Below, piece after piece: positions 4,401 through 30,395 of a DNA stretch of 44,063 nt. The stretch's first letter is position 1. Each line of letters starts with the position of its first letter. A program made the translations under genes and the position numbers. A model generated the notes under the pieces. The model was not told where the DNA came from. It worked only from the letters and a program-made list of their open reading frames with translations, and searched no databases. Source of the stretch: a virus; the IMG/VR virus record IMGVR_UViG_3300025112_000036, positions 1 to 44,063 of that record; one strand, given 5' to 3'.

Positions 4401-6101
4401 CTACCCTTTTGCATCTCCCCAGTTGTCCCCCTCTTCAATGTCGATCTCGACGGGCACACGCATGGGGAACGGGTTCTCCATGAGCTCCGTGATGCGACGC
4501 TTCGCTGGGATGGCGTAGTCGTCATCGTCAGGCACCTCGAAGATGAGCTCGTCGTGTACCTGCAGCAGCATCCGCACGCCCAGCTCTCGCAGCTCTTCGT
4601 CCGCCTCGCACCGCAGCATCGCCTCGTTGGTGATGTCTGCTGCCGAGCCCTGAATGCGTGCGTTGGGGGCTTGCCGCTCCGCCTGCTTCATCAGCCCACG
4701 CTCGGAGGACACGATGTCAGGCAGCCGTCGAGGATGGCCAATGAGGGTGTAGACCGCGAGTTCTTGTCGGCATTGATGCTTCGTGTCCTCGATGAACTCC
4801 CCGACGGCAGGGTAGATGTCGTTCAAGTAGTTCTTGATGAGCTTGTCGGCTTCCGGACACCAGTCGCTCGACTTGCCGTTCTTGAACGTCCGCTTCACGA
4901 TGGGCAGGCCAAGCTGCATCCCCAGCTTCAGCGCACCAATACCGTAGATGATGCCGAAGCCGGTGCTCTTGAGCTCCCCACGCTTTGCGGCCAGCAAGGC
5001 CTGCTCAGGAGTCGGATTGGCCGCGGCCTTGGCTGCCTTCACCTCGTCGTAGGTGAGCCCGGCAGGGATGCCCGGAACGCCTCGCTCGGACGCCAGCACG
5101 ACCGTCTGGCAATGAAGGTCCAGCCCCTTGTTGATGGCATCGATCATGCCCTGGTCACAGCTGAAATGGGCCATGATGCGCATCTCGAGCTGGCAGTTGT
5201 GAGACAGAAATCCTTCGCAGATGAAGGTCTTGGTGCTGGTCTGAATCGCCACCACCTCCCCGTCTTCGAGCCGCTCGATCTTGGTGACGCGAACTACGGG
5301 AGTGTGCGCCGACCATGTCCTCTTGCCATCCCACAAGATGTGGGCCTTTTCCAGCAATCGTGCAGGGCGGAACATTCCAATGGCCCGCAGACCTCCCTTG
5401 TTTCCGTAGAAGTCCAGCTGCTGCACATCATCCTTCTTTCGCAGACGACGTCGGACCTCCAGCTCCGGGAACTTTGTCAGGGAGGATTCGATCTGCCGCA
5501 AGCACGCATTCGGCCTCTGAGCCATGCTCACTTTTCCGCTTCTTGTGGCGCGGCCTTCCCCGTCGAGGATCCCCGAGAGGTAGCCTGCATCCCATCCCTG
5601 GGCGGTGTCCCATGGCTCTGCGAAGAACCCGATGCGGTCCCCCAGTTCGAGCTCGTCGGTGCGGACCCAGGAACGCCGCCGACGCTTCCATGTCTCTCCA
5701 GAGCCCCCAACTACCCACTGATGGTCGCCGGAGCAGATCAGCTCGGCTCCGTTGTCCATGGTGACCTTGAACCGCGGCTTGGTGACCCGCTTGCACCCCT
5801 CGACGACAGAGCTCTTCAGCTTTGCCCGCGAGAGCTTCTCATCGAAGCCGATGAGGCGATCCCCTTCCTGGACCTCACCGGCGGGGACCCATCGAAGGTC
5901 TTCCGTCAGCAGCCTCATCGCGGAGTCAACGCAGTAGTCCGCCACGATGAGGCGCATCGGGAAGTCGTCCGGCAGGTCCGGCCCTTCTACGTCCCGCAGG
6001 TGCTCCATGCACAGCATGGGATCGACATCGCCAAAGAGACCAGCCACGAAGAGCTGACGAATCCGCTTGCCCCACACCGGATCCTTGGCCGGGATGTTTT
6101 G
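4401..6101 (-). CDS. polA: DNA polymerase I family, C-terminal exon with motif A intein
   Basis: This is the polymerase domain downstream of the group I intron. Its first codon, CAA at 6099-6101, joins the upstream exon ...PNL to give PNLQNIP, the conserved family-A motif. Motif A is split by an intein: VADY is followed by the intein, and C-QLEMR resumes after it. Spliced motif A is DYCQLEMR, equivalent to DYSQIELR of E. coli Pol I. The O-helix (KRGELKSTGFGIIYG) keeps R, K and F at the 4-residue spacing of E. coli R754/K758/F762. Motif C is QVHDELIF near the end. The frame remains open to 6173, but that part lies in the intron. After all splicing the whole polymerase would be about 833 residues. 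Two Asp and one Glu needed for metal binding are present. Confidence 0.9.
   Translation of the reverse strand, partial: QNIPAKDPVWGKRIRQLFVAGLFGDVDPMLCMEHLRDVEGPDLPDDFPMRLIVADYCVDSAMRLLTEDLRWVPAGEVQEGDRLIGFDEKLSRAKLKSSVVEGCKRVTKPRFKVTMDNGAELICSGDHQWVVGGSGETWKRRRRSWVRTDELELGDRIGFFAEPWDTAQGWDAGYLSGILDGEGRATRSGKVSMAQRPNACLRQIESSLTKFPELEVRRRLRKKDDVQQLDFYGNKGGLRAIGMFRPARLLEKAHILWDGKRTWSAHTPVVRVTKIERLEDGEVVAIQTSTKTFICEGFLSHNCQLEMRIMAHFSCDQGMIDAINKGLDLHCQTVVLASERGVPGIPAGLTYDEVKAAKAAANPTPEQALLAAKRGELKSTGFGIIYGIGALKLGMQLGLPIVKRTFKNGKSSDWCPEADKLIKNYLNDIYPAVGEFIEDTKHQCRQELAVYTLIGHPRRLPDIVSSERGLMKQAERQAPNARIQGSAADITNEAMLRCEADEELRELGVRMLLQVHDELIFEVPDDDDYAIPAKRRITELMENPFPMRVPVEIDIEEGDNWGDAKG
5196..5933 (-). 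mobile_element. Contiguous intein in DNA polymerase motif A
   Basis: 246 residues between VADY and CQLEMR. It starts with Cys (CVDSAMRLL), has a splicing block B with the conserved His (CSGDHQW), and ends FICEGFLSHN just before the +1 Cys of the extein. A GYLSGILDGEG segment in the middle is a LAGLIDADG-type endonuclease motif; only one clear copy is visible, so the endonuclease may be reduced. Removing it restores DYCQLEMR. The insertion separates the two acidic residues of motif A, so the unspliced polymerase should be inactive. Confidence 0.92.
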
Positions 6102-7015
6102 CCTTGATGTTACGGACCGCCCGTTTCCGGCGGTCCTCTCTCGGTTTCCCGAGAGAGCAGACCATATCACCACGTCTTTTGACGTGCCCCGCGCTTCGGC
6201 CCCACTTAGGGCCTACTCGCTTGCGCGATGGTCGTTGGACCTTCACCACGTAGGTGTCTTGTACAGCAGCGCAGAAGGAGCAATCTTTCTGGCCATTGTC
6301 AAGATCTGAACAGCAATAGGCTTAGGCACAATCCAGACCTTGTTCCTCTCGGAAGCACGGCTGTTGTTCTTTGCCACTCGCCCAGCAGACGCAGTACCGA
6401 AGCGGTCACGGGCCCAGTCCAGGACGAAGTCCGGGTCAGAGCTCAGTTCTGGGCCCAGCGAGATGCTGACCCGCAGGCTTCCGCCATCGTTGCGGCGGAC
6501 AGTACATCCGTCGTCCAGGAACCACATTCCCAGCCCCAGGTCTGAGAGACCAGACAGTGCCTCAAAGCAGTCGAGCTGCTCATGGGCGTCAGTGAAGTCG
6601 GGGTGGACAAGCGAGGTCGCAGTCCAGATGGGCTTGGCATTGGCGTAGGTGCTGTCCTTCTTCCGGTTCCTCACATTGACTGAGCCGCGCAAAGAAGCAG
6701 GGAGCAGGTGCTCTTGCTTCCAGCGGACCCAGTCTTCGCAGATAGAGGACCAGATGATCTTGCTGTTCTTGCACTCCGGGTGCCGCCAAAAGTGTCCGTC
6801 GCCGAGACGGGCATTGGTGATGGCTTCCGAGAGATCTACACAGGTGCTTGGCTGCTGATTGCCCATTTCTTCACCCTCTAACAGGGTGTATATCCCTTGT
6901 GGGATGTTCATCCAAGCTCTTTTCGGCCCATCGCGCTTGCCGTTTCCAGCTACGCTGTGGGGGCTTGGCTTTAGGGGGTTCCAGCAGTTCACGGGGTTTT
7001 ACAACCTCCAGATCA
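6102..7015 (-). ncRNA. Group I self-splicing intron in the polymerase gene
   Basis: The 914-base insertion lies between codons CTT (Leu) and CAA (Gln) of the PNL|QNIP motif. The exon end CAACCTT pairs with GAGGTTG in the first 20 bases of the intron. This gives a 7-bp P1 whose last pair is the conserved U-G wobble at the 5' splice site. The last intron base is G. Near the 3' end are R-like (GTCCAACGACCATC) and S-like (GATATGGTC) elements whose GACCAT/ATGGTC arms form P7. Two P9-type hairpins with GAAA-type loops follow (CTCTCTCGG/CCGAGAGAG and GGACCGCC/GGGCGGTCC). A P4-like CTGCTGGAACCCCCTAAAGC lies near the 5' end. A LAGLIDADG endonuclease gene fills the middle. Confidence 0.9.
6243..6866 (-). 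CDS. LAGLIDADG homing endonuclease inside the group I intron
   Basis: 207 residues from the ATG at 6864-6866, which follows a GAGGGTGA Shine-Dalgarno-like run. The frame is open further upstream to 6992, but that part overlaps the intron core. Two half-motifs are seen: ARLGDGHFW near the N-terminus and GLGMWFLDDGC in the middle, as in the LAGLIDADG family with a WxxDDG second motif. The protein would cut intronless alleles of the polymerase gene and spread the intron. The stop at 6243-6245 lies immediately before the P7 element, so the gene fits between the 5' and 3' halves of the ribozyme core without breaking them. The frame appears intact. Confidence 0.85.
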   Translation of the reverse strand: MGNQQPSTCVDLSEAITNARLGDGHFWRHPECKNSKIIWSSICEDWVRWKQEHLLPASLRGSVNVRNRKKDSTYANAKPIWTATSLVHPDFTDAHEQLDCFEALSGLSDLGLGMWFLDDGCTVRRNDGGSLRVSISLGPELSSDPDFVLDWARDRFGTASAGRVAKNNSRASERNKVWIVPKPIAVQILTMARKIAPSALLYKTPTW

Positions 7016-7150
7016 AAGGTTGGGGCTGGCCGAGTTGTGGTGGACCAGGCCCTGCGCCACGTACGACGCGTCCTCTTCTACCGTCAGGTCCCAGACCTGA
7101 CGGGTTCCTACGGGCTTGATGGTCGCAATGCGGCCGGGAACAAGTCTCAT
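7016..7150 (-). CDS. Split-intein C fragment plus first six residues of the C-extein
   Basis: This exon starts with ATG at 7148-7150, overlapping the TGA of the upstream polymerase fragment (ATGA). It codes for a 39-residue IntC (starting MRLVPGRIATIKPV, with the VWDLTVEEDASYV strand and ending GLVHHN) followed by SASPNL, the start of the C-extein. The frame then runs into the group I intron and resumes at 6101 with QNIP. The IntC length and the terminal HHN plus Ser+1 match natural split inteins such as DnaE or gp41-type. AAGGAGG lies four bases upstream of the ATG. Splicing to the N half gives TWRLA-SASPNLQNIP, equivalent to TGRLSSxxPNLQNIP of family-A polymerases with no residue missing or extra. 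Confidence 0.92.
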
Positions 7151-11339: not shown

Positions 11340-14024
11340 CTACGGACGCAGGATGGAAGTCTTCCGCCGCTTCCGCCGCTTCCCGGTCTTGCCGAAGCTG
11401 CCCTTCCGCTTCTTAACCTCTGCCTTGGCCTTGGCCTTCACGTCGCTCTCCTCCTCGTAGTCCTTTGATTCCTTCAGGAACGAATCCACGTTCACGCTGT
11501 TCTGAAGCAGCGTGAAATCGCAGCCGGGCCAGGCGTTGACCACGAAGGGGTTCAGGACAGAGTCCCGGACCCCTGGGAAGGTCAGCATCAGCTTGGGCTT
11601 CCCGGTGGAGTGGTTCTTGGCCTTGAAGATGCGGGCCAACATGTCGCAGTCCTGGCCGATGGCATCTGCGAAGGCGACCTCATCCGTGTCGTCTCCCTTG
11701 GTCTTGCCGGCAGACCTGTTGGCCTGGGTGGTCCCGATGATGGGGATGTCCAGGTACTGGGCTGCGTCCTTGATGTCGCTCGAGATGTTGGAGATGGTCT
11801 TCCACCCACGGTCCCGAAGTCCAGTGCGGCCGTCCCGCATCAGATAGAAGCCGTCGATCAGCAGCAGGTCTGCCTTGAACTTCTCGGCCTCTGCCACCAG
11901 CGTGTCGACAGTCGCCCCCTTCTTGCCCCCCATCTCACGGTCGGAGATGAAGCTCATCGCAGCCCGCTGGCCGTCTTCCTGAGAATCCTTCTCCCAGTCC
12001 TCCAGGCTCTCCATGAGCTCGAAGAAGTCCTCACGCTCATCGTCGTTGAGGCCCGCTGTCTTCAGCTTCTCGTAGTCAATGCCGGTGATGAGGGAGGCGA
12101 CCCGTCGGATCATCTGCTTCTTCGACATCTCCTTCGAGTAGCAGAGCACCCGACGGTTGTGCATCGAGTAGGCATGGACGCAGCAGTGGAGGGCCAGCCA
12201 GGTGTTGTGGACCGCAAAGCCCTCAACGACGAAGTTGGGATCCTGGCCGTCCTGGATGCAGATGTCGTAGCAGTCATGGCGGCCGACGGGGGTGATCTCC
12301 CTGATTCGATCCCACAGCACGTCTTGCTCTGCCACGATGCGAAGGGGCTCAGAGTCCCACTTGTTCGCCATCTTCATCAGAAGGGCTCGGCTGATCTTGC
12401 CCGAGCGTCGGAACAGCTTGCTCCGATCCAGGTAGGACTGGCCCATCTTTGGCCACTCCTTCCCTTCCTTCTCCCGCAGGATGAGCTGCATGAGTCCTTC
12501 GGAGTAGGGGACCCCGTCGACATTCCGCTTCGTGAACCGCTCCTCAGTCAGCTGGAAGAAGGCTTCCCGCTTGTGGGCGCACTCCACGTAGCCGGCCAGC
12601 TGGGCACACAGCTTCTGGTGCTGATCGAGCCCGGTCACCGTCACGATCCACTGACCCTTGCCAGCGTTCTCCGACCAGTAGGGGCTGCCCACTACTCCCA
12701 GACGGGACAACAAGTGCTTCACGCCATCGGCGAGTACCTTGCTTGCCGTGCACCAGGACACGGTGTACGGCTTCTTGGCCCAGACGTTGCCGTCGGTGTC
12801 CAAGAGTCCTGCCAGGAAAGCGCAGATAGCCTCACGTCCTGCGGTCAGGATGCCCTCGGGAACGTCCTTGTCCTCCGCCTTCTTGCCATGCATCCCAGCC
12901 TTTCGCAGGTAGGTCAGCAGCGGGTTGTCCGGGCGGCCAGGAGCCGTGATCCGGTACTCGCCCGGACGGTGTGCCTCGCGCATCTCACACTCGAACCGGC
13001 CAACCCGATGAGACAGCATGTCCACGACGTCCTGATCGTGGTTCGAGAACTGGACCCCGTTCCGCGCGTAGTTCCCGTCCCCAACCAGGGTGCCCAGGAT
13101 CCAAGCCAGCTCCGTGCTGACGCCAGTCCCGTCCCATGCTGGAGTGTTCCTCGTAGTGGCGACCCAGTCCCCCACCTCGAGATCGCAGATGCGCTCGAAG
13201 GAGCCCTCGAAGGAGCCCTCAGGAACCATGAAGTAGTGCTTGTCGCCTGTCTCCACGGTGTAGCCAGACTCTGTCACGACCCGGACGCAGTCCTTCTCAC
13301 CGCTGTAGACCCTCTTGGCCTTGGCCCACCGCAGCTTGCCAGTGGCCTCCGTGTAGGAAGGGACTTCGCACTCCTCAGGGAGTTCCTCGATGGGGACCAG
13401 CTTTCCGCTCCTGGTCATGATCTTCTGCCCGGCCACAACGCACTTCATCATCTTCGGGCGCGCATAGAAGACGAGCCACTCCTGGTCCTGCATCCCACCA
13501 GTGGACCTGTTCATTGGGCCCCAAGGCCACGGGATGCCCGTGATGCCTCCTGACTGCTCCATGGCCTCATACTCAGCCCGCAAGTCAGCAGCAGCAGACG
13601 AGATGAGCGTCTGGCTACTACGACTTGAAGAGACGCTGAGGTCTCGCAAGGCAGGCAGGAGACCCTGAAGGACAAGGTCGGGAGACTCCCCGCTGTCCAG
13701 GAGGTCATCCATCTCTGCTGTGATCTCTCGGATGCCCGCAGACACGTTGTTGTCCACGACCTCATCGATGAGCGCGGCGAGGGTGTCCCGGCTGGGGCAG
13801 AAGTCGAACTCCGGGAAAGTCCTCCGCACCCGCTCGTAGCTGGGAACCACTCCTCCAGGCTCGGTCTTGGTTCCAGGCTTGAGGACCTCAGCATGGAGCC
13901 AGGCGAAGAGCTCCCTTGCTTCTTCGCCCTGGAAGAGCTGGGAGGTGACGCCGCGGTGGCGGACCTCTTGAAACTGCCCGCGATCGATGATGTTGCTCAG
14001 CAGCTGCAGCTCTACATTGGCCAT
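11340..14024 (-). CDS. dnaB: DnaB-type replicative helicase carrying an intein
   Basis: 894 residues as encoded, about 481 after intein removal. The N-terminal helical domain (VELQLLSNIIDRGQF...) matches DnaB. The RecA-like core has Walker B LLLIDGFYLM, a SKEMSKKQMIRRV region like the DnaB H2 segment, and GTTQANRSAGK, the sensor/H3 region. The Walker A loop is interrupted by the intein. Joined, it reads ARPKMMKT, lacking the usual glycines but keeping Lys-Thr, a form found in some phage helicases. The C-terminus is very basic (KKRKGSFGKTGKRRKRRK). GAGGAGG lies nine bases upstream of the start. It unwinds DNA at the fork and works with the primase and polymerase encoded next to it. Confidence 0.9.
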   Translation of the reverse strand: MANVELQLLSNIIDRGQFQEVRHRGVTSQLFQGEEARELFAWLHAEVLKPGTKTEPGGVVPSYERVRRTFPEFDFCPSRDTLAALIDEVVDNNVSAGIREITAEMDDLLDSGESPDLVLQGLLPALRDLSVSSSRSSQTLISSAAADLRAEYEAMEQSGGITGIPWPWGPMNRSTGGMQDQEWLVFYARPKMMKCVVAGQKIMTRSGKLVPIEELPEECEVPSYTEATGKLRWAKAKRVYSGEKDCVRVVTESGYTVETGDKHYFMVPEGSFEGSFERICDLEVGDWVATTRNTPAWDGTGVSTELAWILGTLVGDGNYARNGVQFSNHDQDVVDMLSHRVGRFECEMREAHRPGEYRITAPGRPDNPLLTYLRKAGMHGKKAEDKDVPEGILTAGREAICAFLAGLLDTDGNVWAKKPYTVSWCTASKVLADGVKHLLSRLGVVGSPYWSENAGKGQWIVTVTGLDQHQKLCAQLAGYVECAHKREAFFQLTEERFTKRNVDGVPYSEGLMQLILREKEGKEWPKMGQSYLDRSKLFRRSGKISRALLMKMANKWDSEPLRIVAEQDVLWDRIREITPVGRHDCYDICIQDGQDPNFVVEGFAVHNTWLALHCCVHAYSMHNRRVLCYSKEMSKKQMIRRVASLITGIDYEKLKTAGLNDDEREDFFELMESLEDWEKDSQEDGQRAAMSFISDREMGGKKGATVDTLVAEAEKFKADLLLIDGFYLMRDGRTGLRDRGWKTISNISSDIKDAAQYLDIPIIGTTQANRSAGKTKGDDTDEVAFADAIGQDCDMLARIFKAKNHSTGKPKLMLTFPGVRDSVLNPFVVNAWPGCDFTLLQNSVNVDSFLKESKDYEEESDVKAKAKAEVKKRKGSFGKTGKRRKRRKTSILRP
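12204..13442 (-). mobile_element. Intein with LAGLIDADG endonuclease in the helicase P-loop
   Basis: 413 residues (195-607 of the precursor). It starts with Cys (CVVAGQKIMTRSGK), has block B ETGDKHYF, and ends VVEGFAVHN before the +1 Thr. Two endonuclease motifs, AWILGTLVGDGN and AFLAGLLDTDGN, are complete, so the homing endonuclease could be active. Insertion in the DnaB P-loop is a site used repeatedly by inteins. Confidence 0.93.
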
Positions 14025-24119: not shown

Positions 24120-27100
24120 ATGCCCAATCTGAACCCAGAAGCCGCCTTCGAGAGCATGAAGACCCAGGTGGAGGCTGCGATAAAGGGCCAGTTCCCCTTC
24201 GAGGGCAAGAAGAGGCGGCTCGAGCTCATTTCACTGGCCTTCGACGAGAGGGCCTCAGAGCCTACGGCAGCCCACCACGTGGACAACGTCCACGCCCAGT
24301 ACAACGCCAAGACCAAGGGACGGACCTGGGGGGTGCCGCTACGAGGTCAGCTGCGCCTGGTGGACCTGGAGACCAGGAAGACAGTCGAAGAGACCACACT
24401 CACCCTCGCACTCCTTCCGAAGCTCACGCGCCGGTACTCCTACGTCATCGAGGGCCAGGAGCGACAGCACGACAGCGTCTTCCGGTCCATGCCCCGGCCC
24501 TACCACCGGATCGCCAACAACGGGGAGATCCAGGCGGAGTGGAACCTGGCTCGAGGGCTTGGGTTCAAGCTGATCTACTACCCGGTGAAGGGCCACATCC
24601 GGATGAAGCTGGGGGAGACCCACGTTCCCGTGGGCTCCGTCCTCAAAGTCATGGGCGTCGGCGATGCCACCATGGAGCGGTACTTCGGGCGGGTGGTGTA
24701 CGAAGCCTGCAAGAAGGACATGAAGCCAGTGGACCTGGACAAGATGTTCAAGTCCCTCAGGCTTCGTAAGCAAGAAGACAGGGGGACGATCGCCCCGGAT
24801 GAGAAGAAGCGGCGCATTCTTGCGTACTTCTCGGAGCAGACAGAGGTCTGGCCCGATGCCATGGAGTCCGCGTTCGGGAAGCCGTTCTCCACGGTCACGT
24901 CTGAGGGGCTTCTCCTCTCTTCGAAGCGTCTCCTCGCCATCCAGCATGGGCGGAACAAGGAGAACCCCACCATCCAGGAGAAGCCGGACGACCGTCAGGC
25001 CCTGTCTTCGAAGTACCTGACCAGCACCGAGGACTTCATCGTAGAGGCCATCGCAAAGAAGACGGCGGAGCTGAAGCGTCGAGTCCTGCAGCGGATCGAC
25101 AGGGACGATCGAGGGATCGCCAACATCTTCAACAACCACGACTTCAACAAGGTCATCAACGGGGTCTTCGAGCACGCACAGCGCCCGGACCAGACGAACC
25201 CGCTGCAGATGCTGTCTGGCCATGTCCGCACCACCATCCGCGGCTCCGAGTACGGCGGTGTGGGCGGGAGTCAGACCAACGTCAACAAGGACAAGCAGAT
25301 CAACCCCACGCACCTCGGCTTCCTGGATACCATCCAGACGCCGGAGTCGAGCGACACGGGCATCGCCCTGCATCTCCCGCTCGGGGTGCAGTCCGAGCGG
25401 GCCCCAGACCGGAAGGGCCGTGCCTCCTCGGGCCACCTGATCAAGACCAGGGTCTACGACGTCAAGGCCAAGGAGTGGGTGATGGCGACGCCGGGCCTGC
25501 TCGAGCGTGCCAACGTCGCCTTCCCCGACCAGGTCAAGTGGTCCGGGAAGATCCCGGTTCCCATCGCCCAAGAAGTCATCTGCTACGACTCCGAGCGGCA
25601 ACAGTCCCGGATGCCGTGGAACAAGGTCCAGTACATCCTTCCCTCGTCGAAGGCCCTCTTCTCGTTCAGCGCGAACCTCATCCCCTTCCTGCAGAACAAC
25701 AACGGCAACCGAGGGATGATGGCCGCCAAGCAGCAGGAGCAGGCAGTCTCTCTCAAGGACCGGGAAGCACCCCTGGTCCAGACCCAGACAGATGAGGGAG
25801 GGACGTTCGAAGAGACCGTCGGCAGCTTCTCTGCGCACTACGCTCCCGTTGCTGGAACGGTGGTGAAGGTCCAGAAGGACATGATCCACATCCGGGGAGT
25901 CGGCCGGAAGGTGACCAAGGTCCCCATCTACAAGGACTTCCCCCTCAACGGGGCGAAGACCTTCGTCACGGCACACCCGGTGGTGAAGGCTGGAGACGCG
26001 GTCAAGAAGGGCCAGCTCATCGCCGACACCAACTACACCCGGGACGGGAAGTTGGCGATGGGGAAGAACCTCCGCGTCGCCTACATGCCCTACAAGGGGC
26101 TAAACTTCGAAGACGGGGTGGTCATCTCCGAGACCGCGGCCAAGAAGCTGACCTCGGACCACATGCACCAGGAGTCCGTGACCATCTACCCAGGGATGCT
26201 GGGAGGTACGGAGGCAGGCGATCTGGGGCAGTGGGTGCGCTACGCGATCCCCGAGCGCACCACCATGGGGAAGATGTCCAAGCTGGACAAGAGCGGCGTC
26301 ATCAAGGAGGGAACTCCCGTAGAGAGCGGGGACGTCATGGTGGCGGTCCTCTCCCCTTCCCAGGATGCCAAGGAGGACGAGCTCCACTCTCGTCTCCACA
26401 GGTCCCTGGTGAAGCCCTACCGGGACAAGTCTCTGGTCTGGGACCACAGCTACCCGGGCAAGGTCATCAAGGTCATCCAGCACAACAACACGGTCACCGT
26501 GCACGTCCGGACGGAAGAGCCGATGGTGGTCGGCGACAAGCTGTGCGGACGCCACGGGAACAAGGGCATCGTCTCGCGCATCGTCCCCGACCACAAGATG
26601 CCGCACGATGCCGAGGACGCCCCGGTCCACATCCTGCTCAACCCTGCAGGTGTGCCGTCTCGGATGAATGTCGGACAGGTCCTCGAGACGGCAGCCTCCA
26701 AGATCGCCAAGAAGACGGGCAAGCCCTACATCATCGAGAACTTCACCCCCGGTGTGGACTACTCGGCCAAGATCAAGATGGACCTGGCCAAGCACGGCCT
26801 GTCCGACACGGAAGTGCTCTACGACCCTGAGACCCGGCGTCCCCTGGGGAAGATTCTCACAGGTGACCAGTACATCCTGAAGCTCCACCACAGCGTCGAC
26901 AAGAAGCAGACGGCCCGCTCCTACGGGACCTACACCGGAGCTGGAGACGCGCCCTCTGGGTCAGGCATCCCTGGTGGCGGCCAGAAGATGGACCTGCTGA
27001 CGACCTACTCGATGCTCTCCCACGGAGCGAAGCACAACCTCCGGGAGGCACAGTCGTTCAAAAGCGATGGAGAACAGGAGCGAGTCTGGGATGCCGTGAT

Positions 27101-30100
27101 GCTGGGGCACCCGCTGCCGGCACCTGAGTCCGCAGCGGGTATGCGGAACTTCATGGCGTACCTCCGAGTCCTCGGAGTGAACGCGGAGAAGAAGGGGGAC
27201 CAGTACGTCCTCATGCCGCTCACGGACAAGCAGACCAAGAAGGTCTCCAACGGGCTCATCGAGAATCCGGAGAAGGCCCTCTACGCCAAGGGTGCCCTGA
27301 CTATCGACGAGGCCAAGGGACTCTTCGAGCCGCGCATCACCGGTGGCCGGGACGGCCCCTACTGGTCCCACATCGATCTCGCAGAAAGGATGCCGGGCCC
27401 CCTCTACGAAAAGGCCATCCAGTCCGTCCTCAACATCAAGAAGTCGGAGTATGCGGAGCTCACCAGCGACAAGCTCGTAGACGGGAAGTCCGGGTTCAAG
27501 ACCATCGTCGAGAGGCTGGAAGCCATCGATGTCGACAAGGACCTCGCCAAAGCCAAGGCCTCCCTCTCATCGCTCCGTGGCAGTCCTCTCAACAAGGCCT
27601 ACCGCCGGGTGCGCTACCTCGAGGCCCTCAAGAAGAACGGGATCTCCCCGGTGGACGCGTACACCAACAAGACCTTGCCCGTCATTCCTCCCAAGATGCG
27701 AAAGGTCTCCATCGGGCTGGACGGGAAGCAGATCCTGGACGACATGAATGGTCTCTACCTCCAGGTCGGCTACGCGAATGGGGCCTTGGCCAGGTCACAC
27801 GCATCGAATCCTGAAGACGAAAAGCAGAAGGAGCGAGCTCACCTCTACACCGCCATCAAGGCGCTGCGCATCACGGGGATGAGCATCGGCAAGGGCAAGG
27901 CAGCCCGGCACCACGCGGGAATGATGGAGCGCCTCACTGGCAAGATCCAGGGTGAAGGAGCTCCGAAGCACTCGTTCCCGCAGAAGGGGGTGCTTGGTCG
28001 CCGACAGGACCTGTCTGGGCGGTCGACCATCGTCCCCGAGCCGGACATGGGCCTGGACGAGGTGGGCATCCCCATCCCCATCGCCCTCGAGATGTACAAG
28101 CCCTTCGTGGTTCGGGAGCTCCGCCGACAGGGAGTGACCCCCGCACGTGGCCTGAAGATGGTCATGGAGAAGGACGAGAAGGCCCTGCGTGCACTGGAGG
28201 AGGTGGTCAAGGATCATCCCGTCCTCCTCAAGCGTGACCCGGCCCTCCACAAGTTCTCCGCCATGGCGTTCCGCCCTCGGCTCATTCATGGGAAGGCCAT
28301 TGCTATCCACCCTCTGGCCTGCGGCGGCTTCAACGCGGACTTCGACGGGGATGCCATGGCACTCTTTGTCCCGGTCGGCGATGAGGCCATCGACGAGGCC
28401 AGAGGAATGGTCCCGTCCAAGAACCTTTTCTCACCCACTCACTTCGGACTGATGTCCACCCCTGGCCAGGGTTCGCTGCTCGGGCTGTACCAGGCCTCGA
28501 AGTGGGGGGCGGCGGCGGCAGTCCCCAACAAGGTGACCCGGAAGCAGGTCATCAAGCTGATGGAGGATGGGAAGCTCAAGCCGGACAACGTCGTTGCCGT
28601 CGACGGGAAGCTCACGACTCCTGGTCGGCTGGCCTTGGCAGAGACACTTCCCCCGGAGCTCAGGAACCACGAGAAGCTGCTGTACGACAAGCAGTTCCGC
28701 CTGGACAAGGGGGGCATGAAAGAGGTCATGACCGAGGCAGCTCGGAAAGATGAGAAGCACTTCCCCAAGACGGTCAACGACTGGAAGGACGTCGGGAACC
28801 GGCTGGCGTACCTGAGCGGTAGCTCCATCAGCATCAACGACTTCCACGACGGACACAAGTTCCGCGACCACATCCTCGCCCCCTACAAGCGGGAAGAGGC
28901 CGCCGTCCTGCGCTCGAAGGCCTCCAAGAAGGTGAAGGACAAGAAGGTCATCGAGATCTACGGCCGCGCGCAGGAGGAGCTCGAGACCGTCGGGAAGAAG
29001 CGCTACGCCGCCATCGGCGAGAACAAGATGTTCGAGTGGACGAGCTCGGGAGCTCGAGGCAACTGGGGGCAGTTCTCCCAGCTGGTCTTCGGCCCTATGC
29101 TGGTCCTGGATGCCGAGAAGAAGACGGTCGCTGTCCCGCTCACCAAGTCCTACGGTGAGGGCCTTTCCCTCTCGGAGTACTGGGCCTCGATGCACGGAGC
29201 TCGCAAGGGCATCCTCGACCGCGTCGCCGGTACTCAGGAGCCCGGTGCCCTGACGAAGGACATCATCAACACCGTCATCGACTACAAGATCTCCAACAAG
29301 GATTGCGGAGACACCTCAGGGACTCAGATGAGCCCTCGAGACCTTGATGTCGTCGGTCGGTTCCTCGCAGGACAAGTCACCCTGAAGGCAGGTGCGACCT
29401 TCAAGGCAGGAACTGCTCTGGACACCCGCATCCTGACCCGCATCCGCAACGCGGGGATCATGCAGATCCCCGTCCGCTCCCCTCTGCACTGCAAGATGCA
29501 AACTGGCATCTGCGCGATGTGCTACGGCCAGAACCAGAACGGGAAGCTTCACCGTGCGGGTGTCAACATCGGCACCATCGCCGGCCAGTCTCTCGGCGAG
29601 CCAGTCACTCAGCTCACCATGGAAACATTCCACAGTGGAGGAGTCGCCGGCGGCAAGGACGTTGTCGGAGCCTTCGACCGAGTGAAGCAGCTCTTCTTCG
29701 TGCCAGACAAGCTCACCAACGCTGCCACTCTGGCCACTGTCGGGGGGCGCATTGAGAGTGCCAGCAAGGACGCGCGAGGCGGGCACTCTGTCTTCATCAA
29801 GGGGAAGGAGCACCGGGTCATCACTGGTGACCTGCTCCCGAGCATCCGGGTCGGAGCAATGGTGTCGAAGGGAGATGCTCTCTCTACGGGGCCGATCAAC
29901 CCCCACCATCTCCTGCAGCAGACGAACAGCATGCCGCAGGTCCGGAACTACCTCACCGGGGAGCTCGACCTGGCGTACAACGGGGACAAGCCTTCAGGTT
30001 CGGTCCGTCGCCGGAACATCGAGACGGTCGTCCGGGCGATGACCAACAGGACCATGATCACCGATGCTCCCCCGGAGTCCGGCTTCCTGCGAGGGCAGCG

Positions 30101-30395
30101 GGCGTACCTTTCCAGGGTCGAGGGCTATAATGCCCAGGCACTCACTGAGGGCCGTCAGGGGATCAAGCACGCACCCCAGCTGAAGTCCATGACTCAGATC
30201 CCGGTTACCGGGACTGAAGACTGGATGGGCCGATTGAACTACCGTGGGCTCAAGAACACCTTTGAAGAGGGGGCCGCCCAGGGCTGGGCCTCCGACATCC
30301 ACGGGGACCATCCCATTCCTGGTCTGATGCACGGCGCAGAGTTTGGCATCCGCCCTTACAAACCCAAGAAGTCCTACAGTAGGAAGAAGAAATGA
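24120..30395 (+). CDS. Single-chain fused beta-beta' DNA-directed RNA polymerase
   Basis: 2091 residues, joining bacterial-type beta and beta' cores in one chain. In the beta part: IQTPESSDTGIAL (about 405, compare [10 protein letters not shown]), IPFLQNNNGNRGMMA (about 523, compare FLEHDDANRALMG), FEDGVVIS (about 663) and GRHGNKGIVSRIVP (about 810) with the NPAGVPSRMNVGQ motif. In the beta' part: the catalytic NADFDGDAM (D1407, D1409, D1411), bridge helix EYWASMHGARKGIL through ALTKDI (about 1686-1717), zinc Cys C1729, C1791, C1798, C1801, and trigger loop NIGTIAGQSLGEPVTQLTMETFHSGG (about 1816-1841). It is shorter than E. coli beta plus beta' (about 2750). The beta' N-terminal zinc ribbon was not seen and the rifampicin-pocket segment is cut down. 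No alpha, omega or sigma gene is in the window. It is coupled by ATGA to the next virion gene. Confidence 0.95.
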   Translation: MPNLNPEAAFESMKTQVEAAIKGQFPFEGKKRRLELISLAFDERASEPTAAHHVDNVHAQYNAKTKGRTWGVPLRGQLRLVDLETRKTVEETTLTLALLPKLTRRYSYVIEGQERQHDSVFRSMPRPYHRIANNGEIQAEWNLARGLGFKLIYYPVKGHIRMKLGETHVPVGSVLKVMGVGDATMERYFGRVVYEACKKDMKPVDLDKMFKSLRLRKQEDRGTIAPDEKKRRILAYFSEQTEVWPDAMESAFGKPFSTVTSEGLLLSSKRLLAIQHGRNKENPTIQEKPDDRQALSSKYLTSTEDFIVEAIAKKTAELKRRVLQRIDRDDRGIANIFNNHDFNKVINGVFEHAQRPDQTNPLQMLSGHVRTTIRGSEYGGVGGSQTNVNKDKQINPTHLGFLDTIQTPESSDTGIALHLPLGVQSERAPDRKGRASSGHLIKTRVYDVKAKEWVMATPGLLERANVAFPDQVKWSGKIPVPIAQEVICYDSERQQSRMPWNKVQYILPSSKALFSFSANLIPFLQNNNGNRGMMAAKQQEQAVSLKDREAPLVQTQTDEGGTFEETVGSFSAHYAPVAGTVVKVQKDMIHIRGVGRKVTKVPIYKDFPLNGAKTFVTAHPVVKAGDAVKKGQLIADTNYTRDGKLAMGKNLRVAYMPYKGLNFEDGVVISETAAKKLTSDHMHQESVTIYPGMLGGTEAGDLGQWVRYAIPERTTMGKMSKLDKSGVIKEGTPVESGDVMVAVLSPSQDAKEDELHSRLHRSLVKPYRDKSLVWDHSYPGKVIKVIQHNNTVTVHVRTEEPMVVGDKLCGRHGNKGIVSRIVPDHKMPHDAEDAPVHILLNPAGVPSRMNVGQVLETAASKIAKKTGKPYIIENFTPGVDYSAKIKMDLAKHGLSDTEVLYDPETRRPLGKILTGDQYILKLHHSVDKKQTARSYGTYTGAGDAPSGSGIPGGGQKMDLLTTYSMLSHGAKHNLREAQSFKSDGEQERVWDAVMLGHPLPAPESAAGMRNFMAYLRVLGVNAEKKGDQYVLMPLTDKQTKKVSNGLIENPEKALYAKGALTIDEAKGLFEPRITGGRDGPYWSHIDLAERMPGPLYEKAIQSVLNIKKSEYAELTSDKLVDGKSGFKTIVERLEAIDVDKDLAKAKASLSSLRGSPLNKAYRRVRYLEALKKNGISPVDAYTNKTLPVIPPKMRKVSIGLDGKQILDDMNGLYLQVGYANGALARSHASNPEDEKQKERAHLYTAIKALRITGMSIGKGKAARHHAGMMERLTGKIQGEGAPKHSFPQKGVLGRRQDLSGRSTIVPEPDMGLDEVGIPIPIALEMYKPFVVRELRRQGVTPARGLKMVMEKDEKALRALEEVVKDHPVLLKRDPALHKFSAMAFRPRLIHGKAIAIHPLACGGFNADFDGDAMALFVPVGDEAIDEARGMVPSKNLFSPTHFGLMSTPGQGSLLGLYQASKWGAAAAVPNKVTRKQVIKLMEDGKLKPDNVVAVDGKLTTPGRLALAETLPPELRNHEKLLYDKQFRLDKGGMKEVMTEAARKDEKHFPKTVNDWKDVGNRLAYLSGSSISINDFHDGHKFRDHILAPYKREEAAVLRSKASKKVKDKKVIEIYGRAQEELETVGKKRYAAIGENKMFEWTSSGARGNWGQFSQLVFGPMLVLDAEKKTVAVPLTKSYGEGLSLSEYWASMHGARKGILDRVAGTQEPGALTKDIINTVIDYKISNKDCGDTSGTQMSPRDLDVVGRFLAGQVTLKAGATFKAGTALDTRILTRIRNAGIMQIPVRSPLHCKMQTGICAMCYGQNQNGKLHRAGVNIGTIAGQSLGEPVTQLTMETFHSGGVAGGKDVVGAFDRVKQLFFVPDKLTNAATLATVGGRIESASKDARGGHSVFIKGKEHRVITGDLLPSIRVGAMVSKGDALSTGPINPHHLLQQTNSMPQVRNYLTGELDLAYNGDKPSGSVRRRNIETVVRAMTNRTMITDAPPESGFLRGQRAYLSRVEGYNAQALTEGRQGIKHAPQLKSMTQIPVTGTEDWMGRLNYRGLKNTFEEGAAQGWASDIHGDHPIPGLMHGAEFGIRPYKPKKSYSRKKK

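What the first reader, a model, noticed from the sequence alone, without database searches (positions are those of the whole stretch)
6102..7015. Group I intron with LAGLIDADG gene in the same polymerase gene, with exact splice sites readable by eye
Exon ends are CTT and CAA, restoring PNL|QNIP. A 7-bp P1 forms between exon CAACCTT and intron GAGGTTG with the conserved terminal U-G pair. R/S-like elements form P7, two P9-type hairpins are present, and the last base is G. The endonuclease reading frame fits between the ribozyme halves. These signals are independent and agree.
Basis: partly seen in the sequence, partly recalled or inferred. Interest (0 to 1): 0.75.

Follow-up and report, generated by a model that had tools for sequence, protein, structure and literature searches.

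The report
Self-splicing intron in phage DNA polymerase
A phage DNA polymerase gene is interrupted by a self-splicing RNA intron that carries its own DNA-cutting gene; the element type and even the insertion site are already known from other phages, but here the intron shares 37 codons of the polymerase active-site region with a split intein and a second intein, which is unusual.

Summary
Positions 7015-6102 (minus strand) are a group IA2-type intron in a phage polA gene, between codons matching E. coli Leu676 and Gln677 (PNL|QNIP). Rfam's Intron_gpI model gives only two sub-threshold pieces, because a 624-nt gene splits the core; published phage introns also fail that cut-off. A covariance model built from eight other phage introns, none found through the window's own motifs, hits 6244-6132 at 91.7 bits (E 1e-14). 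P3, P4 and P7 covary between the window, an IMG/VR relative (L001) and Xanthomonas phage phiL7, whose HNH-bearing intron occupies the identical site. A polymerase 56% identical (L012) has the uninterrupted site.

The internal gene (207 aa, 6866-6243) is a two-motif LAGLIDADG_2 protein of the I-SceI family. It keeps both acidic residues and is under purifying selection. LAGLIDADG introns are uncommon in phages but recorded (phiNIT1, MarsHill). The most likely working is ribozyme splicing plus endonuclease-driven homing; neither was shown by experiment.

The less ordinary part is the setting: within 37 codons the gene also holds a mini-intein split between two ORFs (ATGA overlap) and a second intein, so the polymerase should need trans-protein, RNA and cis-protein splicing.

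The parts
7016..7033 (-). 5' exon of polA between the C-intein and the intron (SASPNL)
   Evidence: translation and alignment with L001 and L012
6102..7015 (-). group IA2-type intron, 914 nt, whole element
7016..7022 (-). P1, exon strand CAACCTT (pairs with 7008-7002)
   Evidence: seven pairs, terminal U-G; same in L001 and phiL7
7002..7008 (-). P1, intron guide strand GAGGTTG
6990..6996 (-). P3 5' strand CCCCGTG (pairs with 6193-6187)
   Evidence: covaries: TCCCGTG/CGCGGGA in L001, CTCCGTG/CGCGGAG in phiL7
6981..6987 (-). P4 5' strand CTGCTGG (pairs with 6858-6852)
   Evidence: CTCAGGG/TCCTGAG in phiL7; Rfam piece
6852..6858 (-). P4 3' strand TCAGCAG, R-like element
6836..6846 (-). P6/P6a 5' strand (pairs with 6253-6244); the gene fills the P6 loop
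   Evidence: pairing seen in sequence
6244..6253 (-). P6/P6a 3' strand
6243..6866 (-). intron-encoded LAGLIDADG_2 homing endonuclease, 207 aa, stop included
6228..6233 (-). P7 5' strand GACCAT (pairs with 6165-6160)
   Evidence: GACTAT/ATAGTC in phiL7; models R1, R2
6218..6227 (-). P7.1 hairpin CGC-GCAA-GCG
6198..6213 (-). P7.2 hairpin
6187..6193 (-). P3 3' strand CGCGGGG
6171..6186 (-). P8 hairpin CACGTC-AAAA-GACGTG
6160..6165 (-). P7 3' strand ATGGTC, S-like element
6136..6157 (-). P9 hairpin with GAAA loop
6114..6135 (-). P9.1 hairpin
4401..6101 (-). 3' exon of polA (with second intein 5933-5196 inside) to the stop codon
7147..7437 (-). N-half of a split mini-intein in polA (96 aa), with stop
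   Evidence: TIGR01445 28.4 bits, PDB inteins, cis homologue at the same polA site
7034..7150 (-). C-half of the split mini-intein (39 aa), own ATG overlapping the upstream stop as ATGA
   Evidence: TIGR01443 21.1 bits, over its cut-off
5196..5933 (-). second polA intein (246 aa), inserted after the Tyr matching E. coli Tyr706
   Evidence: absent in L001 and L012

Best explanation
It is a mobile group IA2-type intron. In the polA transcript the RNA folds (P1-P9.1), uses guanosine to cut after CAACCUU at the U-G pair, and joins the exons so that PNL is followed by QNIP; without splicing translation stops at once (anatomy shown, splicing inferred). The P6 loop holds a gene for an I-SceI-like two-motif LAGLIDADG endonuclease, which would cut the uninterrupted PNL-QNIP site in intron-less polymerase alleles so that repair copies the intron in (fold family, conserved acids and selection shown; cutting inferred). 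The same gene carries a split mini-intein 18 nt upstream and a second intein 168 nt downstream, so the mature polymerase should need RNA splicing plus two protein-splicing events.
For: Exact in-frame exon junction and immediate stop if unspliced. R2 covariance model from window-independent introns, 91.7 bits, E 1.2e-14; R1 from 49 introns, 97.1 bits with all 24 pairs standard (partly circular because those introns were picked by the window's P7 motif). Compensatory changes in P3 (three states), P4, P7, P7.1, P7.2, P8, P9 among window, L001 and phiL7. Same-site intron in L001-L003 with 66% identical gene. Same-site intron in phiL7, published as polymerase site 676 (PMC3428280). Uninterrupted 56%-identical polymerase in L012. 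CTT and CAA, the flanking codons, are 7.0% and 7.7% of Leu and Gln codons in this genome, and L012 has CTC and CAG, fitting the demand for U at the 5' splice site. Endonuclease: profile hits I-SceI 1r7m E 2e-18, Gly-Asp and Trp...Asp-Gly motif positions invariant, dN 0.28 against dS about 1.9.
Against: Rfam gathering score not reached. The window endonuclease alone is under the Pfam cut-off (20 bits against 25). P10 is weak (about 2 bp, read by eye). No RNA or enzyme data exist; the phage is known only from an assembled IMG/VR record.
Confidence: 0.94

Rival explanations
1. The intron splices but the internal protein acts mainly as a maturase that helps folding, with little or no endonuclease activity.
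For: The conserved gene could be kept for splicing; [quoted passage not shown] phiNIT1's relative is annotated as RNA maturase.
Against: Acidic residues of both LAGLIDADG motifs are kept. The ribozyme half looks complete, with all modelled pairs standard, so no obvious need for help.
Confidence: 0.1
2. The element is a decayed, non-splicing insertion in a dead polymerase gene.
For: The gene is interrupted three times in 37 codons, and the first intein is in two frames.
Against: Both exteins and the endonuclease show dN well below dS against L001; no stop or frameshift in any exon apart from the ATGA split; no other polA seen in the record.
Confidence: 0.04
3. The resemblance to a group I intron is chance or a non-splicing RNA structure.
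For: No Rfam match at the gathering score.
Against: R2 E 1.2e-14 with no other hit in 95.6 kb but L001; covariation; identical insertion site in three diverged phages.
Confidence: 0.01

Closest known systems
DNA polymerase group I intron of Xanthomonas phage phiL7 (EU717894), site 676
   Same: Identical insertion point (PNL|QN), identical P1 strands, near-identical P1-P3 stretch, same IA2 architecture with P7.1 and P7.2
   Different: phiL7 carries an HNH gene; the window carries an unrelated LAGLIDADG_2 gene; no intein at the neighbouring sites of phiL7 polymerase was seen in the stretch read
Group I introns of SPO1, SP82, Bastille and Pf-WMP3 DNA polymerase (I-HmuI, I-HmuII, I-BasI, I-PfoP3I), site 674
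   Same: Same host gene, same subgroup, two codons away, endonuclease gene in P6a for Pf-WMP3 (PMC3428280)
   Different: Insertion after Pro674 rather than Leu676; HNH nicking enzymes
phiNIT1 DNA polymerase intron with LAGLIDADG_2 gene (phrog_11023; PMC11878797)
   Same: Group I intron in a phage DNA polymerase with a gene of the same endonuclease family
   Different: The annotated first exon ends at SSRDPK, just upstream of the NL|QN site; a second gene, of HNH type, follows
Staphylococcus phage MarsHill and Bacillus phage BpSp introns with LAGLIDADG_2 genes
   Same: Gene in the core loop of an IA-type phage intron; family profile shared
   Different: Host genes are the prohead protease (MarsHill) and, by position, an RNA polymerase gene (BpSp)
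I-SceI (yeast mitochondrial intron endonuclease)
   Same: Two-motif LAGLIDADG family, profile match E 2e-18
   Different: Different host, gene and target; window protein is shorter (207 aa)
Phage genes with both an intron and an intein (SPbeta nrdE; PMC3653736)
   Same: RNA-spliced and protein-spliced elements in one gene
   Different: Here two inteins, one of them split, and all three elements in 37 codons of polA

Membership tests
Group I intron | P3-P7-P8-P9 core with conserved R and S elements | tested here: met
   R2 91.7 bits; P3, P4, P7 strands found and covarying
Group I intron | P1 between 5' exon and guide with U-G at the splice site, terminal G | tested here: met
Group I intron | Clean, uninterrupted allele in a relative | tested here: met
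   L012 PNLQNIP, 56% identity over 833 aa
Group I intron | Self-splicing with guanosine | not testable with these tools
   needs RNA
Group I intron | Rfam RF00028 gathering score (an operational cut-off, not a defining feature) | tested here: not met
   15.1 and 15.0 bits; published phiL7 intron also fails, 31.7 of 50
Subgroup IA2 | P7.1 and P7.2 between P7 and P3 3' strand | tested here: met
   this marks subgroup IA; IA1 against IA2 was not tested with dedicated models, and IA2 rests on homology with phage introns classed so in PMC3428280
LAGLIDADG_2 homing endonucleases | Family profile match | tested here: met
   Alone sub-threshold PF03161, 20.8 of 25 bits, phrog_11023 E 1e-3; as part of family profile A6, I-SceI E 2e-18; profile-profile E 3e-5
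LAGLIDADG_2 homing endonucleases | Two motifs each with an acidic residue | tested here: met
   LGDG (Asp23) and WFLDDG (Asp119) invariant with relatives
LAGLIDADG_2 homing endonucleases | Site-specific cutting of the intron-less target | not testable with these tools
   needs protein

The most novel reading that the evidence does not exclude
One phage polymerase is assembled by three different splicing chemistries acting within 37 codons of its active-site region: trans-splicing of a naturally split PolA intein (after the residue matching E. coli Ser670), RNA splicing (after Leu676), and cis-splicing of a second intein (after Tyr706). The elements accumulated next to each other, and each may change the homing target of its neighbour.
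Probability: 0.6. Interest if true: 0.55.

Novelty: new member of a known kind. Interest (0 to 1): 0.38.

Why it matters
It adds a site-676 polymerase intron with a different endonuclease family: the same intron site and near-identical 5' ribozyme end hold an HNH gene in phiL7 and a LAGLIDADG gene here, a clear case of endonuclease swapping in one intron lineage. The three elements inside 37 codons make the question of how neighbouring mobile elements share or block a homing site directly testable. It also shows that the Rfam cut-off misses ORF-split phage introns, so counts based on it are low.

Tried and rejected
Rfam at gathering score: no hit. Structure prediction of the endonuclease from two sequences was poor (mean pLDDT 40), so no fold search was made. 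An alignment-based collection scan for more relatives of the endonuclease returned only the same three contigs. PDB search with the two-sequence profile found nothing real; the seven-sequence profile did. blastn of the polymerase region against phages gave only a ribozyme fragment. BLAST and a collection scan for the split intein found no second split copy. Model R1 was judged partly circular because its members were chosen by the window's P7 motif; R2 was built to avoid that. Chance resemblance and gene decay were rejected (see rivals). The L001 Rfam match at 19.3 bits runs wrongly through the gene in its 5' half and was not used.

Full report
Where it is. The window is a 44,063-bp virus record with phage genes: large terminase, a 2091-aa protein with RNA polymerase Rpb2 and Rpb1 domains, a DnaB-like helicase and a family A DNA polymerase. 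The polymerase is on the minus strand in two ORFs, 8958-7147 and 7150-4401, the second interrupted by the element in question.

The junctions. The 5' exon ends CCCAACCTT at 7016, the 3' exon starts CAAAACATCCC at 6101; joined they read SASPNLQNIPAKDP in frame and the exteins align end to end with relatives. Unspliced, TGA follows Leu directly. In E. coli PolI the point is between Leu676 and Gln677. L012, a contig whose polymerase is 56% identical over 833 aa, is uninterrupted there (PNLQNIP).

The RNA. Rfam Intron_gpI gives two pieces in the right order and strand, 6986-6840 (P4-P5-P6 side) and 6168-6140 (P7 3' strand and P9), each 15 bits, below the cut-off of 50. To test this fairly I collected other phage introns. 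A motif scan brought 100 viral contigs; 49 non-redundant introns (47 from these, two from the genome scan) gave model R1 with strong covariation (94% of cells paired, 17 of 24 pairs changed on both sides), and R1 hits 6244-6132 with 97.1 bits and no non-standard pair. Since that motif came from the window, its P7 part is circular. I therefore built R2 from eight introns located through protein similarity or the literature (phiL7, MarsHill, three in BpSp, three in crAss-like phages). R2 hits the same place with 91.7 bits, E 1.2e-14, and otherwise only L001 in 95.6 kb. Published introns fail the Rfam cut-off too: phiL7 31.7 bits, and a phiNIT1 polymerase intron 19.2 in part although splicing of the phiNIT1 polymerase transcript was shown experimentally (PMC11878797).

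Covariation. P3 is CCCCGTG/CGCGGGG in the window, TCCCGTG/CGCGGGA in L001, CTCCGTG/CGCGGAG in phiL7. P4 is CTGCTGG/TCAGCAG against CTCAGGG/TCCTGAG in phiL7. P7 is GACCAT/ATGGTC against GACTAT/ATAGTC. P7.1, P7.2, P8 and P9 change on both sides among the three. P7.1 and P7.2 before the P3 3' strand mark subgroup IA, as in the introns of phage polymerases that PMC3428280 classes as IA2.

Relatives at the same site. L001, L002 and L003 (contigs from three IMG/VR samples, the intron region identical where it overlaps) carry the intron at the same place with a 66% identical gene; L001 has neither intein. phiL7 has its intron at exactly this point, and its first stretch GGAGGTTGTAAAACTCCGTGAACT differs from the window's by one letter. 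PMC3428280 lists phage polymerase intron sites 674, 676 and 881, with phiL7 at 676. So the site is known; the gene inside differs (HNH there, LAGLIDADG here).

The flanking codons. CTT and CAA are 7.0% and 7.7% of Leu and Gln codons in this genome; L012 uses CTC and CAG at the same place. This fits the need for U at the 5' splice site and exon letters carried along by homing.

The gene. ATG 6866 lies in the 3' strand of P5/P4, the stop at the end of the P6 3' strand, so the gene fills the P6 loop and overlaps the core at both ends. The relatives BpSp gp156 and the crAss cr128_1 gene also read through the R element near their start (MDNQHPS, IGNKQL). The protein matches PF03161 and phrog_11023 weakly alone and clearly as a family: profile-profile E 3e-5, I-SceI E 2e-18. 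Gly-Asp of motif one and Trp...Asp-Gly of motif two are invariant in seven proteins. dN is 0.28 against dS near 1.9 (saturated) with L001, so the protein is being conserved.

Setting. The upstream ORF ends in an N-intein (TIGR01445 28.4 bits) and the downstream one starts with a C-intein (TIGR01443 21.1 bits, over its cut-off); together they resemble solved mini-inteins (PI-MtuI E 5e-10, gp41-1 E 1e-7). Microcystis phage Mvi-JY20 has a 41% identical intein, unsplit, at the same polymerase site. In the window stop and start overlap as ATGA behind AAGGAGG, which looks like translational coupling; a one-base assembly error is not excluded. A second intein follows the Tyr that matches E. coli Tyr706. 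Neither intein is in L001 or L012. Intron plus intein in one phage gene is on record (SPbeta nrdE, PMC3653736). I found no report of three such elements in 37 codons, but the paper library is partial.

What is shown and what is inferred. Shown: anatomy, homology, covariation, empty site, selection on the gene. Inferred: self-splicing, endonuclease cutting and homing, trans-splicing of the split intein.

Noticed in passing
7437-7034: PolA mini-intein split into two ORFs by an ATGA overlap with an AGGAGG upstream of the second start; an unsplit homologue sits at the same polymerase site in Microcystis phage Mvi-JY20.
   Followed up: partly
5933-5196: Second polA intein (246 aa) with a single GYLSGILDGEG-type motif, inserted right behind the catalytic motif A aspartate.
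   Followed up: partly
11340-14024: DnaB-like helicase with a LAGLIDADG_3 intein; the phage of L001 has a similar intein in its helicase (L001 34-1962).
   Followed up: no
24120-30395: Single 2091-aa ORF with both RNA polymerase Rpb2 and Rpb1 domains (beta and beta-prime in one chain); one IMG/VR relative (L011) at 34% identity.
   Followed up: no
L009 2057-3700: Bacillus phage BpSp: behind an ORF annotated as RNA polymerase beta subunit C-terminus lie three group I introns, one with a LAGLIDADG_2 gene annotated only as hypothetical.
   Followed up: partly
L010 2384-3245: crAss-like phage cr128_1: unannotated group I intron with a LAGLIDADG gene at the end of its DNA polymerase I ORF; the exon seems to continue downstream.
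   Followed up: partly
L137 2618-3108: Manatee Spring phage MW202512: ribozyme 3' half (102 bits with R1) at the end of an 'icea protein' gene, just upstream of the major capsid gene; intron not annotated.
   Followed up: no
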